A stretch of 64,000 nt of DNA from Fodinisporobacter ferrooxydans (lineage in GTDB: Bacteria > Bacillota > Bacilli > Tumebacillales > MYW30-H2), in assembly GCF_022818495.1 (NCBI RefSeq), contig NZ_CP089291.1:1909001-1973000 (forward strand), given 5' to 3'. The notes below the pieces were generated by a model. It did not search any database, was not told the origin of the DNA, and saw only the letters and a list, made by a program, of their open reading frames with translations. The translations under genes were made by a program, and so were the position numbers. Of the stretch, positions 25,766-34,941 are shown in pieces (position 1 is the first letter of the stretch; every line of letters starts with the position of its first letter).

Positions 25766-27973
25766 TCAAGAAAGATTGGCAGGGTTTTGTGGTTCTCCCA
25801 GAGCGAATCGGCTGAACAACGTGTGGCCAAGTACCACAACCAGCGAGAAAGCCATCGCCAACATGGCCCATAAAGGGTGAACGAAACCTGACAATGAGGC
25901 TACAACGCCAATTCCGTTCACTGACAATGCGAGTAATACATTACGAACCGTCATGGCGTAGCTGGTTCGTGCCAAGATATGTGCTTCCAACACAGCTTTG
26001 AGTCGCTGTCCCGGAAGTACAACGTCGGCAGCATCGATGGCAATATCTGTCCCAGTGCCAATGGCAATTCCCACATCGGCCTGCATCAGAGAGGGGGCGT
26101 CGTTGATCCCGTCGCCGATGAAAGCGACTCGGCGGCCTTCTCTTTGCAGTTGTCGAACGAACGAGAGCTTATCTTCCGGAAGCAACTGTGCATGAACATC
26201 CGTAATACCGAGTTCCTCTGCAACTGCACTGGCTGCTTGCTGGTGATCGCCAGTTGCTAGGATAGCTGAAATTTTTAATTTCTTCAACGAAGCAAGAACT
26301 GATTTTGCATCCGGTTTTATGCGATCCGAAACGGAGATCGCACCGGCAACCTTCCCGTTATATGCTACAAATACGATCGTGCGACCATGCCACTGCTGTT
26401 CTGCTATCCACTCCCGAGCCTCTTTCAAATCATTCAGCCCGCGCTCTGTCATCAGCCGCTCCGTGCCAATCAGCACTTCCTGATCTTCTATTCGGGCTTC
26501 GATGCCTCGACCCGGAAGAGCATGGAAGTGATTCATTGACTGAATGGGTAATCCCTGTTCCTTTGCCGCTGAAACAATCGCCTTTGCAACGGGATGTTCG
26601 GATGCCCAATCGGCAGAAGCCGCCAAGCTAAGTACAGTATCCTCATCGCCATTTAATGTCCATACGGATGCCAGTTGTGGTTTCCCTTCCGTTAACGTAC
26701 CAGTCTTATCGAATACGATCGTGTCCACGAGCCGGAAGACTTGGAAGGCTTCCCCGGAGCGCATCAGGATTCCTCGTTCCGCCGCCTCACCACTTGCCCG
26801 AATGATCGCCAAGGGTGTTGCCATGCCAAGCGCACATGGATAACCCATGACAAGCACGCTGAGGACTGTAAAACCCGCTCGCACCCAGAGTGGGTGACCT
26901 TCGAATACCCAACTGGCGACAACCCATAAAAGCCCACCGATAAGTGCCAGTATCAATACGGTCGGAACATAGATATTCAAGATTCTGTCCACGAGCCGGA
27001 GGATTCCCGGTTTCATCACACGCGCTTCTGTAACTTGGTTTGCCACTCGCTGGAGAAATGAATCTTCGCCAATCCGGGTAACCTCGATGATGAGGCTTCC
27101 GTTTCCATTCAAGGATCCTCCAATCACTTCGTCGCCAGGCTGAGTATCTACTGGCAAGGGCTCGCCTGTGACAAGCTGTTGATCCACCGATGACACACCT
27201 TGGACGATTTTCCCGTCGACAGGAATGCGTTCACCAGGTCGAACCCGAACGTGGTCAGCAAGCGCCAGGCTGTCCACCGGAACCATTTCTTCACAACCGG
27301 TTGGATCCAGTCGAGTTGCTGTTGCCGGTTGGAGCGACAAGAGTTTTTGAACGGATTGTGATGCACGCACATGAACCAGAACCGATGCAAAACCACCCAC
27401 ACCGTGGAAGGCGAGCACAAACGTCGTAGCCCCAAAGAAAGCTGACGACGGGAAGGCCGGCCAAATCAATCCGAGAGCACCACCGACGAGTCCGGCCGCT
27501 GCTGCCGCTGCCGCCAAAACGTCTTGGTTTACGATCCCACGGCGGACCGATTGAAAAGCATTACGGAAGACAAAAGATGCGGGCCCCAATGTAGAGATGA
27601 TGGCGAAAGCCGCCTGCCCAACATCAAATATCATGGAATGTCCTAGCCAAAAGCGCAGAACCATCCATATCGTGGCAAGGGCAACCAGAATACCAACGTG
27701 AATGGCGGTACGCCGGGCATTGTTTAGTTCCTGCTTTTCCACCGCGAAAACATCCGCACGATTCGGCTCTCTCGATGTGTACCCGAGCTGATATAACGTT
27801 TGTGTCATCGTATCGATTCGTACTCGACCTGGATCGTAGTCAATGAGAACTTCCTGGTGTGCGAGACTGACTTGCGCATCCGAAACGCCGTCCAATCGGA
27901 CAAGTGCACGCTGAACGGATTGAGTGCATAGTGAGCAGTGCATGCCTCCCACCTTGAGATGGAGTTTACTCAT
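25766..27973 (-). CDS. P1B-type metal-transporting ATPase with YPC motif
   Basis: 735 residues. An N-terminal HMA domain has GGMHCSLC (residues 9-16). The phosphorylation motif is DKTGTLTEG and the hinge is GDGINDAPS. The transmembrane metal-site motif is GYPCALGMATP, with Tyr where most copper pumps have Cys (CPC). This should alter metal choice, so copper specificity is not certain. The promoter region has two ATACCCCCT elements. First gene of the operon with the CsoR-like repressor, HMA protein and MFS transporter. Confidence 0.9.
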   Translation of the reverse strand: MSKLHLKVGGMHCSLCTQSVQRALVRLDGVSDAQVSLAHQEVLIDYDPGRVRIDTMTQTLYQLGYTSREPNRADVFAVEKQELNNARRTAIHVGILVALATIWMVLRFWLGHSMIFDVGQAAFAIISTLGPASFVFRNAFQSVRRGIVNQDVLAAAAAAAGLVGGALGLIWPAFPSSAFFGATTFVLAFHGVGGFASVLVHVRASQSVQKLLSLQPATATRLDPTGCEEMVPVDSLALADHVRVRPGERIPVDGKIVQGVSSVDQQLVTGEPLPVDTQPGDEVIGGSLNGNGSLIIEVTRIGEDSFLQRVANQVTEARVMKPGILRLVDRILNIYVPTVLILALIGGLLWVVASWVFEGHPLWVRAGFTVLSVLVMGYPCALGMATPLAIIRASGEAAERGILMRSGEAFQVFRLVDTIVFDKTGTLTEGKPQLASVWTLNGDEDTVLSLAASADWASEHPVAKAIVSAAKEQGLPIQSMNHFHALPGRGIEARIEDQEVLIGTERLMTERGLNDLKEAREWIAEQQWHGRTIVFVAYNGKVAGAISVSDRIKPDAKSVLASLKKLKISAILATGDHQQAASAVAEELGITDVHAQLLPEDKLSFVRQLQREGRRVAFIGDGINDAPSLMQADVGIAIGTGTDIAIDAADVVLPGQRLKAVLEAHILARTSYAMTVRNVLLALSVNGIGVVASLSGFVHPLWAMLAMAFSLVVVLGHTLFSRFALGEPQNPANLS

Positions 27974-31389: not shown

Positions 31390-34300
31390 TTATTCATGGT
31401 GATGTTCCGGTTCCTGATCGCAACAAAGGATGGCATCTTTATGCGGGTGACCGTCATCTTCTGTTTGAATGGTTGCATGGCTAATGCCCAAATGGATAAG
31501 ATTATGTTCAATTTCCCGGATAATCGATTGACTCTGGCGAATGGACATACTTCCATCAAGCACTACATGACAAGATAAAGCGTTCTTTCCGCTGGTTATG
31601 CTCCATGCATGCAGGTCGTGTACATCATATACGCCCTTGATCGATCGGATTGCTTGCACGATATCCGGAATGGAAATCCCGCTTGGTGTTCCTTCCATGA
31701 GAATACCAATGGTTTGTTTCAAAATCTTCCATGCGCCAAACGCAATGAGTACGGCGATCAAGAAACTGAGGATGGGATCGACTGCATACCAGCCTGTCGT
31801 TGCAATAATGATGCCGCCAATAATAACGCCCGCGGATGCGGCCGCATCACCCAGCATGTGCAAGACTGCGCTTTTGACATTAATGTTTTCCTCTTTGCTG
31901 AGCCCCAATCCAAGATATAGATTCATAACGAGCCCGACTCCGGCGCTGATAAACATCCAAGTGCTGCTCACAGGTTCCGGAGATTGCAACCGTTTGTATG
32001 CTTCCCATCCGATGACCAAGGCAATGACAATTAACGACAAAGCATTAATAAAAGCAGCCAAAATCCCCGACCGGTGATATCCGTATGTCATTGCTTCGTT
32101 TGGAGGCTTCATCGCTTGCTTCATGGCATACCATGACAAGCCGATCGCCGCAATATCTGTCAAAACGTGTCCGGCATCGGAAAGCAGCGCCAAGCTGTGG
32201 GAAATATAACTTCCGATCAATTCAACAACAAGGATCACAAGGGTTAGAAAAAAAGCAATTTTCATTTTGCCAATCGGGGCATGAGAATGGAAAACCCCAC
32301 TGTGGTCATGATCATGTCCATGATCGTTTGTATGTGAGTGTGTTGTAGCCATCGAATCTCTCCTTTTCAAAGGATCAAAGATCTTTTTACAATTCAACAT
32401 GTAAGACCGGGATCGCAGCAAGCGCAAGCCGTTTAACGTGACGAGCAGTGTTGCTCCCATATCTGTTAGAATTGCAAACCAAAGTGTCAGCCAGCCTGGG
32501 AATACCAGCAATACGGCAATGGTCTTCAGTGCCAAAGCCAAGAAAATATTTTGTTTGATAATGCCAAGTGTCCGTCTGCCTAATGCAACGGCATAAGGTA
32601 TCCTGGATACATCGTCCGACATCAATGCGACGTCTGCAGTTTCCAGCGCAACGTCCGTTCCCGCTTTCCCCATGGAGATCCCGACAGTGGCGGCTGCGAG
32701 TGCCGGAGCGTCATTGATCCCATCGCCGACCATTGCCACCTTTTTTTGTGTTTGCAGCAACTTCTTCAGTTTTTCCAGCTTCTGTTCCGGAAGCATTTCT
32801 CCGTAATACTCCCGAATGCCTACACGTTCCGCAATGGCACGGGCCGTTTGCTGTGTGTCGCCGGATAACATGACGATCTGTTGAATGCCTAAATGATGCA
32901 GCGCTTGAATTGCAGCGGCGCTTTGTTCACGTACCTGGTCCGAGACAGCGATCCAGCCAAGAATCTCGTATTCATCCCCCAGCAGTATCAAGGTTTGGCC
33001 TTGTGCCTGGATCCGGTTGATTTCCTCCTGAACGGTCGACCAATCGATATGCAGGTCATGGAACAAACGGACATTGCCGATATAATAGGTTTTGCCGTCG
33101 ATCCTGCCAGATGCGCCTTTGCCGACAAGGATTTGCATGGTTTCCGCCATTTGCGGGGAACTGACACCCATGGCATCCGCTTTGGCGAGAATCGCGCCGG
33201 CAAGCGGGTGTTCCGAACCTCTTTCCAGCATTGCGGCAAGTGTAAGGATCTCCAGCTTCGAACGTGAGCTTGTGGTATCCCAATCCATGACAACAGGTTT
33301 GCCTTTTGTCAAAGTTCCGGTCTTGTCAAAGGCAATTCCTTTTAATTTCCCCAGTTCCTCCAGATATAAGCCGCCTTTGATCAGAACTCCGTTGCGTGCA
33401 GCCGAGCCGATTCCGGTAACGATCGCGACCGGTGTCGAGATGACGAGTGCACAAGGACAAGCGACGACGAGCAATGCCAAGGCTTCGTATATCCAATGTT
33501 TCCAATCCCCATGAAAGAAGAGGGGAGGAACAAAGGCAGTCATCAATGCCAAGCTCATGACAATCGGCGTGTAATGTTTGGCAAAACGGTCGACAAATGT
33601 TTGGGAAGGAGCCTTTTGGTTTTGTGCCTCTTCCACCAAATGGGTGATTTTTGCCAATGTAGTATCCTGTGCAAGAGCTGTGGCACGCATGCGAATGGTA
33701 CCTGTTTGATTCAAGGTTCCCGCATAAACCGCATCGCCCGCCTGCTTTTCGACAGGCATCGATTCGCCTGTAATCGCCGCTTCGTTGATAGTGGTGGCAC
33801 CTGCCATGATTTCGCCATCGATTGCCAGTTTCTCCCCGGGTTTGACGAGCAGTTCATCTCCGATCGCCAGTTGTTCAACAGGCAGCCGAACTTCACGCCC
33901 GCCGCGAATCACGATGGCTTCTTTTGGCGCAAGATCCATTAACGTCCGGATCGAGGAGCGGGCTTTCTCCATGGAATACGACTCCAGCATTTCACTCACG
34001 GAAAACAGGAAGGCTACGGTTGCTGCCTCTTTCCACTGGCCGATGAACAGTGCGCCAATGACAGCAACTGTCATTAATACGTTCATGTCAAAATCAAGGC
34101 GCATAACATTTCGCAAACCTTTTTTCGCGACCGAATATCCGCCAAGAAGGATGGAAAGAAGCAGAAAGAGCCGTCCCGATGCGAATGACCCAAATCCCCA
34201 TCCCAACAGCAGACATACGAGAGACAAACCGGTTGTCCAAACCTTTTGTGAACGATACCAGGGAAGCTGTATCAAAGATTGGGCAGAACCCTCTTCAGCG

Positions 34301-34503
34301 AAGGAAACCTGTTCGACTTTTCTCGCTTCTTTTTCCAATTGATCTTTGGAAAGCGTACCGATGACCATTAATTTGGCTGTGGCAAAATGTAAAGATACTT
34401 CTGTCAGTTCAGGCAACGCCTGAAGATGCCGCTCAATTTTGGCGGCGCAACCTGCTCAGGTCATGCCTGTTATATGATAGACCGATTTTTTTTCCGCAGT
34501 CAT
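31390..34503 (-). CDS. CadA-like P1B ATPase fused to CzcD-like CDF exporter, with TGA at codon 16
   Basis: From ATG 34503 the frame reads MTAEKKSVYHITGMT, then TGA at 34458-34456, then AGCAAKIERHLQALPEL; read through, it is 1037 residues. The first 45 residues are an HMA domain with TGA where the first Cys of GMTCAGC belongs. Next is a Zn/Cd/Pb-type ATPase with VVACPCALVISTP, FDKTGTLTKG and GDGINDAPAL. From residue 718 (MATTHSHTNDHGHDHDH) a complete CDF exporter of 320 residues follows in the same frame. A strong AAAAGGAGAG site lies 5 bases before that Met, so the second half can also be made alone. The upstream ArsR gene ends 21 bases before the ATG. Confidence 0.8.
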
Positions 34504-34524
34504 GTTGACGTTCGCCTCCTACTC

Positions 34525-34941
34525 CTACTCCTCATCCCATTCGCAATGTCCACAATCATCCGTATTTTCCTGCAGATGGAGAGCTTCCTGAATCAAATGC
34601 CGGATGTGCGGGCTTTGCAAGCTGTAAAACACCATTTTTCCTTCCCGCCGATATTTGGCCAGTCCCATATTTTTTAGCAGACGCAGATGATGGGAAGCGG
34701 TAGCGTTCGACGAGTCGATAATCGTAGCCACATCACATACACAAAGTTCGTTTTCTTTGCTTAGTGCGTATACGATGCGCAACCGAGTTTCATCCGCCAA
34801 GGCCTTGAATAAGGGAACGATCCGATCTGTTCGATTCATTTCGGTTTGGCGGCGTTGGACTTTTTCCGGATCATACATGAAGATATCGCACGTATCGTTA
34901 CAGTCTTGCTGTTTTGGAAGATCATGTTTATCGAAAGCCAA
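34525..34941 (-). CDS. CadC/SmtB-type ArsR-family metal repressor
   Basis: 138 residues from a TTG start (AGGGGG 8 bases upstream). The winged helix (45-110) has ELCVCDVATII, with the Cys pair used by CadC, and the recognition helix SSNATASHHLRLLK. An N-terminal QDCNDTCDIF supplies further Cys ligands as in CadC, and the tail ends DDCGHCEWDEE. It should release DNA on binding Cd, Pb or Zn. It is the first gene of the operon with the ATPase-CDF fusion. Confidence 0.9.
   Translation of the reverse strand: MAFDKHDLPKQQDCNDTCDIFMYDPEKVQRRQTEMNRTDRIVPLFKALADETRLRIVYALSKENELCVCDVATIIDSSNATASHHLRLLKNMGLAKYRREGKMVFYSLQSPHIRHLIQEALHLQENTDDCGHCEWDEE

What the first reader, a model, noticed from the sequence alone, without database searches (positions are those of the whole stretch)
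34419..34503. In-frame TGA replaces the first Cys of the CxxC metal motif in a CadA-type ATPase: possible selenocysteine
From the ATG at 34503 (GGAGG upstream) the frame is MTAEKKSVYHITGMT-TGA-AGCAAKIERHL and continues unbroken for over 1000 codons. The HMA family consensus here is GMTCAGC, so TGA stands at the position of a metal-binding Cys, exactly where Sec would substitute. Decay would not be expected to pick that codon. The mRNA around it can fold: CCTGA (holding the TGA) pairs with TCAGG, and GCCGC with GCGGC, 42 bases in all. The apical loop lacks the early G common in bacterial SECIS, so the structure is only suggestive. Against: no sel genes in the window; TGT/TGC to TGA is one mutation; the ATPase may also restart at a TTG (34416).
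Basis: partly seen in the sequence, partly recalled or inferred. Interest (0 to 1): 0.9.

Follow-up and report, generated by a model that had tools for sequence, protein, structure and literature searches.

The report
Selenocysteine in a metal-efflux pump
The "stop" codon in this bacterial heavy-metal pump almost certainly codes for selenocysteine in the metal-binding tip of the pump; this kind of selenium-containing pump had already been predicted in other bacteria, so it is a well-supported new example (present twice in the genome) rather than a new kind of thing.

Summary
From ATG 34503 (AGGAGG upstream) the frame reads MTAEKKSVYHITGMT-TGA-AGCAAKIERHL, with TGA at 34458-34456, in a ZntA/CadA-type metal ATPase. 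A second, near-identical copy of the ATPase with the same TGA lies elsewhere in the genome. In a sample of 399 genomes from the same class, 23 genomes (20 genera) carry TGA at exactly this codon and all 23 have selA; only 62 of the 222 genomes with a homologue have selA (Fisher p = 5e-15). Cys occupies the position otherwise. A canonical bacterial SECIS hairpin (UUCAGGC-GUU-GCCUGAA, 7 bp, loop starting with G) lies just downstream, at 34424-34408, conserved with compensatory changes. Its UGA-to-loop spacing is 38 nt, one more than the usual limit. Other lineages have the hairpin 16-17 or 21 nt after the same codon, and most distant Cys homologues lack one. The family (Sec UxxC "cation-transporting ATPase E1-E2") is already predicted in the literature, so this is a new member. 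Sec incorporation and metal specificity remain untested at the bench.

The parts
32404..34503 (-). Zn/Cd/Pb(/Hg)-type P1B ATPase, about 700 codons, with Sec at residue 16; this copy has lost its stop codon
   Evidence: TIGR01525 633 bits (cut-off 346), TIGR01512 545.7 (cut-off 313.5), Pfam HMA + E1-E2 ATPase + hydrolase
34456..34458 (-). TGA read as selenocysteine, replacing the first Cys of the HMA CxxC motif
   Evidence: same codon is TGA in 23 genomes of the class sample plus L026, Cys in the other homologues examined
34408..34424 (-). Most likely SECIS: UUCAGGC-GUU-GCCUGAA, G-first apical loop, UGA-to-loop spacing 38 nt
   Evidence: -8.3 kcal/mol, 0.2% of synonymous recodings as stable, two pairs with compensatory changes in the clade
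34429..34445 (-). Proximal hairpin (core CCGC/GCGG); invariant in this clade, same register as the proximal SECIS (loop 16-17 nt after UGA) of other lineages but without the loop G
34304..34482 (-). HMA metal-binding domain containing the Sec (about residues 8-67)
   Evidence: Pfam PF00403 residues 9-65, 39.5 bits; similar to solved HMA domains of CadA (2aj0), ZntA (1mwy) and CopA
34515..34520 (-). AGGAGG ribosome-binding site of the ATPase
34525..34941 (-). ArsR/SmtB-family regulator with the ELCVCD motif (CadC-like), directly upstream
   Evidence: NF033788 96.3 bits (cut-off 55); also next to the Sec ATPase in copy 2, and in G003 and G005
31390..32352 (-). CDF-family cation efflux transporter; own RBS (AAAGGAG) and ATG at 32352, but in frame with the stop-less ATPase
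   Evidence: TIGR01297 276 bits, PF01545

Best explanation
The gene encodes a selenocysteine-containing P1B-type heavy-metal efflux ATPase (CadA/ZntA group) under a CadC-like ArsR regulator. Ribosomes starting at ATG 34503 reach UGA at codon 16, where SelB with Sec-tRNA(Sec), recruited by a hairpin in the mRNA just downstream (most likely 34424-34408, loop GUU), inserts Sec. The N-terminal HMA domain then carries a Sec-x-x-Cys metal site instead of Cys-x-x-Cys. Shown here by sequence: the TGA, its conservation, the Sec machinery, the hairpin and its covariation, the protein family and the operon. Inferred: actual Sec insertion; that the selenolate/thiolate pair binds soft metals (Cd, Pb, Hg, Zn); and that it tunes metal capture or regulation rather than transport itself, since the membrane CPC motif is unchanged.
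For: Own genome: tRNA-Sec 60.5 bits and ARAGORN SeC(tca), selA 598.7 bits, selB 387.5 bits, two selD with one in-frame TGA each, an Fdh-alpha with TGA. Second copy with the same TGA. Same-codon TGA in 23 of 222 homologue-bearing genomes, all 23 selA-positive against 62 of 222 overall, Fisher p = 5.4e-15; L026, a named MAG, also has it. The one other row with a TGA, in a selA-less genome, has Cys at this codon and the TGA at +182, a real stop. SECIS-like hairpins: mean -7.2 kcal/mol in 24 Sec genes versus -2.0 in 25 Cys genes, p = 5.5e-7. Covariation in the proximal helix among Sec genes (0/500 shuffles reach the score) and none among Cys genes; covariation in the distal helix of the window's clade. 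HMA codons on both sides of the TGA are conserved. Known family.
Against: No direct proof of Sec insertion. The window's best hairpin is 38 nt from UGA, one beyond the published 16-37 nt range (PMC13188914). Its proximal hairpin lacks the loop G. Four of 24 Sec genes (L026, L073, L082, L084) have only weak canonical hairpins. The two TGA copies in this genome are not independent: 1.9 kb around the TGA is 100% identical. The 23 genomes are related, so the Fisher p is optimistic. Genomes with matches beyond the listed rows were counted as non-TGA without inspection.
Confidence: 0.95

Rival explanations
1. TGA is an ordinary stop produced by mutation; the ATPase is made from an internal start (TTG 34416 or later) without its HMA domain, a truncated or decaying gene.
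For: TGC/TGT to TGA is a single change; a TTG lies at 34416; the gene is duplicated, so one copy could decay. HMA domains are dispensable in some P1B ATPases (established knowledge).
Against: TGA at the same codon in 23 genomes, only where selA is present; HMA residues after the TGA are as conserved as in Cys homologues; good RBS and ATG upstream; the TTG sits inside the SECIS loop, with no evident RBS; both copies keep the frame open.
Confidence: 0.03
2. TGA is read by another route (natural suppression as Trp or Cys, or a code change), or is a sequencing error.
For: Read-through by near-cognate tRNA exists in general (established knowledge); no tool result here supports it.
Against: The TGA appears in two separate places of one assembly and in many independent genomes. 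TGA works as a normal stop elsewhere: in the window only this frame joins a conserved domain across a TGA. A dedicated tRNA-Sec with selA/B/D is present, and the phylogenetic pattern follows selA.
Confidence: 0.02

Closest known systems
[quoted passage not shown] example ABB15669.1; 25 organisms and 32 proteins in PMC5029168)
   Same: P1B ATPase with Sec in a UxxC motif, in Sec-decoding bacteria; the window protein scores 633 bits on TIGR01525
Cys-type ZntA/CadA Zn/Cd/Pb ATPases
   Same: Whole architecture, HMA + CPC-type P1B core, ArsR regulator
   Different: Sec replaces the first Cys of the HMA motif
Metal-binding (seleno)protein UxxU (NF041115) and Sec forms of mercuric transport proteins
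   Same: Sec in place of Cys in an HMA-type metal site (weak HMM match, 20.4 bits, below the cut-off of 95)
   Different: Small stand-alone proteins, not ATPases

Membership tests
Sec-containing cation-transporting ATPase E1-E2 (UxxC) | P1B heavy-metal ATPase core | tested here: met
   TIGR01525 633 bits against cut-off 346; TIGR01512 545.7 against 313.5
Sec-containing cation-transporting ATPase E1-E2 (UxxC) | In-frame TGA at the first position of the HMA CxxC, Cys in homologues | tested here: met
Sec-containing cation-transporting ATPase E1-E2 (UxxC) | Host has selA, selB, selC and selD | tested here: met
Sec-containing cation-transporting ATPase E1-E2 (UxxC) | Direct homology to the type example ABB15669.1 | not tested
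   Sequence not available to the tools; filed by COG/TIGR family and motif only
Bacterial SECIS (bSECIS model as given in PMC13188914) | Apical loop 3-9 nt and upper stem 4-16 bp | tested here: met
   7 bp, 3-nt loop
Bacterial SECIS (bSECIS model as given in PMC13188914) | G in the first two loop positions | tested here: met
   Distal hairpin loop GUU; the proximal hairpin fails this
Bacterial SECIS (bSECIS model as given in PMC13188914) | UGA-to-loop spacing 16-37 nt | tested here: not met
   38 nt in the window and most of its clade, 37 in L025; the source says 'for most' elements
Bacterial SECIS (bSECIS model as given in PMC13188914) | MFE of -7.5 kcal/mol or lower | tested here: met
   -8.3 for the isolated hairpin
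Bacterial SECIS (bSECIS model as given in PMC13188914) | Binds SelB and directs Sec insertion | not testable with these tools
   needs a binding or reporter assay
ZntA equivalog (NF033775) | Curated score cut-off 1240 bits | tested here: not met
   573 bits: related to ZntA, not the named equivalog

The most novel reading that the evidence does not exclude
Within one selenoprotein family and at one fixed Sec codon, the SECIS element has moved along the coding sequence: loop 16-17 nt, 21 nt or 37-38 nt downstream in different lineages. The window's lineage uses a distal element beyond the accepted spacing and keeps a proximal stem without its loop G; some relatives have gone to Cys but still carry the SECIS as a relic.
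Probability: 0.6. Interest if true: 0.55.

Novelty: new member of a known kind. Interest (0 to 1): 0.45.

Why it matters
Sec is usually discussed as a redox catalyst. Here it sits in a metal-ligand position of an efflux pump, so the family offers a direct test of Sec as a soft-metal ligand. The mixture of Sec, Cys and Cys-with-SECIS-relic genes makes the gain, loss and relocation of a SECIS traceable. In practical terms such genes can be mis-annotated: a standard ORF caller starts this one at TTG 34416 and so loses the metal-binding motif and the first third or more of the HMA domain.

Tried and rejected
RNAalifold on all 24 Sec sequences together gave no structure, because five sequences of one lineage and L026 put the hairpin elsewhere; the 18 that share the proximal register fold as expected. 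The genome-contig scan gave only two unnamed Bacillota MAG relatives, so the organism was not identified. Literature searches on HMA/P-type ATPase plus Sec added nothing beyond the reviews. The Fisher test assumes independent genomes; a tree shows about 10 Sec/Cys switches, at least 3 forced by strongly supported branches.

Full report
WHAT IS THERE. On the minus strand, ATG 34503 is preceded by AGGAGG (34520-34515), and the frame reads MTAEKKSVYHITGMT-TGA-AGCAAKIERHLQALPEL... with the TGA at 34458-34456. The protein is a heavy-metal P1B ATPase of the Zn/Cd/Pb group: TIGR01525 633 bits, TIGR01512 545.7 bits, both far over cut-off, with Pfam HMA, E1-E2 ATPase and hydrolase domains. Upstream, about 20 nt away, ends an ArsR/SmtB-type regulator with the CadC-like ELCVCD motif; downstream is a CDF cation-efflux gene. 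The frame is longer than 1,000 codons only because the ATPase's stop is lost in this copy (TAC where the second copy has TAA), so it runs into the CDF gene, which keeps its own RBS and ATG at 32352.

SEC MACHINERY. The genome (one contig, 4.86 Mb) has tRNA-Sec (Rfam 60.5 bits, ARAGORN SeC with anticodon tca), selA (598.7 bits), selB (387.5 bits) and two selD genes over cut-off, each with one in-frame TGA, plus an Fdh-alpha gene with an in-frame TGA.

CONSERVATION OF THE TGA. A second copy of the ATPase, with the same TGA, lies at G000:C1:153388. In the order, three other genomes have TGA and one close homologue has Cys at the codon. In a class sample of 399 genomes, 24 genomes had listed rows with one TGA inside the frame. 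In 23 it aligns with the first HMA Cys; in G094 that position is Cys and the TGA is 182 codons on. The 23 genomes fall in 20 genus codes. All 23 have selA over cut-off, against 62 of the 222 genomes with a homologue (Fisher p = 5.4e-15, optimistic because genomes are related and unlisted weaker matches were counted as non-TGA). G094, the exception, has no selA. A named MAG locus, L026, also has GMTUADCAAK. On a tree made without the Sec column, Sec and Cys need about 10 switches, at least 3 on strongly supported branches; the window lies in a clade (support 99) of 7 Sec and 3 Cys genes.

THE SECIS. I tested the published bacterial model (loop 3-9 nt, stem 4-16 bp, G in the first two loop positions, spacing 16-37 nt, MFE of -7.5 or lower; PMC13188914). 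In the window the best hairpin is UUCAGGC-GUU-GCCUGAA at 34424-34408: 7 bp, loop GUU, -8.3 kcal/mol, spacing 38 nt. I let the scan run to 38 after seeing it. Only 0.2% of 500 synonymous recodings do as well. Its clade keeps it as CCAGGC-GGU-GCCUGG, CCGGGC-GUU-GCCCGG and UUCGGGC-GGU-GCCCGGA, i.e. with compensatory changes at two pairs. Other lineages have the same kind of hairpin with an early loop G 16-17 nt after the UGA, with compensatory changes CCGCUC/GAGCGG, CUGCUC/GAGCAG, CUUCUC/GAGAAG and CUGUUC/GAACAG, and one lineage has it at 21 nt with loops such as GAAAA. The own-genome Fdh gene folds with a GUU-containing loop as well. Across sets, Sec genes average -7.2 kcal/mol and Cys genes -2.0 (p = 5.5e-7); Cys genes show no covariation at this helix. 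Three Cys genes keep an intact canonical hairpin (L027, L046, L065); all three are in selA-positive genomes and close to Sec genes, so they look like recent Sec-to-Cys changes. The TTG proposed as a restart codon lies in the distal loop.

HOW IT WORKS. Shown: the codon, its conservation, the machinery, the hairpin, the family, the operon. Inferred: SelB-dependent Sec insertion; a Sec-x-x-Cys soft-metal site in the HMA domain. Solved HMA domains of CadA (2aj0), ZntA (1mwy) and CopA are sequence relatives; that their CxxC cysteines are the metal ligands is established knowledge. The transmembrane CPC motif is unchanged, so I expect the Sec to affect metal capture or regulation and not the transport path. 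Metal specificity (Zn, Cd, Pb, Hg) is inferred from the family, the CadC-like regulator and, for copy 2, a mercuric-reductase-like gene nearby (by eye).

KNOWN OR NEW. [quoted passage not shown] This is therefore a new member. What I did not find described in the papers read is the shift of the SECIS along the gene and the Cys genes that keep the SECIS as a relic. Copy 2 lies about 6 kb from the second selD and near a predicted double-Sec metallo-beta-lactamase-fold protein.

LIMITS.

Noticed in passing
window 32401-32406 and 31390-32352: The ATPase stop codon is lost (TAC; TAA in copy 2), giving one open frame ATPase + linker + CDF transporter; the CDF keeps its own RBS and ATG. Could be a real fusion or simple read-on of a duplicated gene.
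   Followed up: partly
window 33042-34940 versus L038 10951-12849: A 1.9-kb tract between the two ATPase copies is 100% identical while both ends diverge, which suggests gene conversion.
   Followed up: partly
L038 4820-6094, 6256-7005: Second selD (Sec-type) next to a metallo-beta-lactamase-fold (persulfide-dioxygenase-like) frame with two in-frame TGAs, 4-6 kb from ATPase copy 2: a possible selenium-linked cluster.
   Followed up: partly
L027, L046, L065: Cys-type ATPase genes in selA-positive genomes that still carry an intact SECIS-like hairpin: likely relics of recent Sec-to-Cys change.
   Followed up: partly
L083 (G094): ATPase homologue with Cys at the HMA site but an in-frame TGA 182 codons later, in a genome without selA: a truncated gene.
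   Followed up: no
window 25766-27973: Second P1B ATPase (HMA motif GMHCSLC, Cys type), whose HMA domain matches the UxxU metal-binding (seleno)protein model NF041115 at 51 bits, below its cut-off of 95.
   Followed up: no
G000 C1: Four formate dehydrogenase alpha genes over cut-off, only one with an in-frame TGA: Sec and non-Sec isoforms side by side.
   Followed up: no
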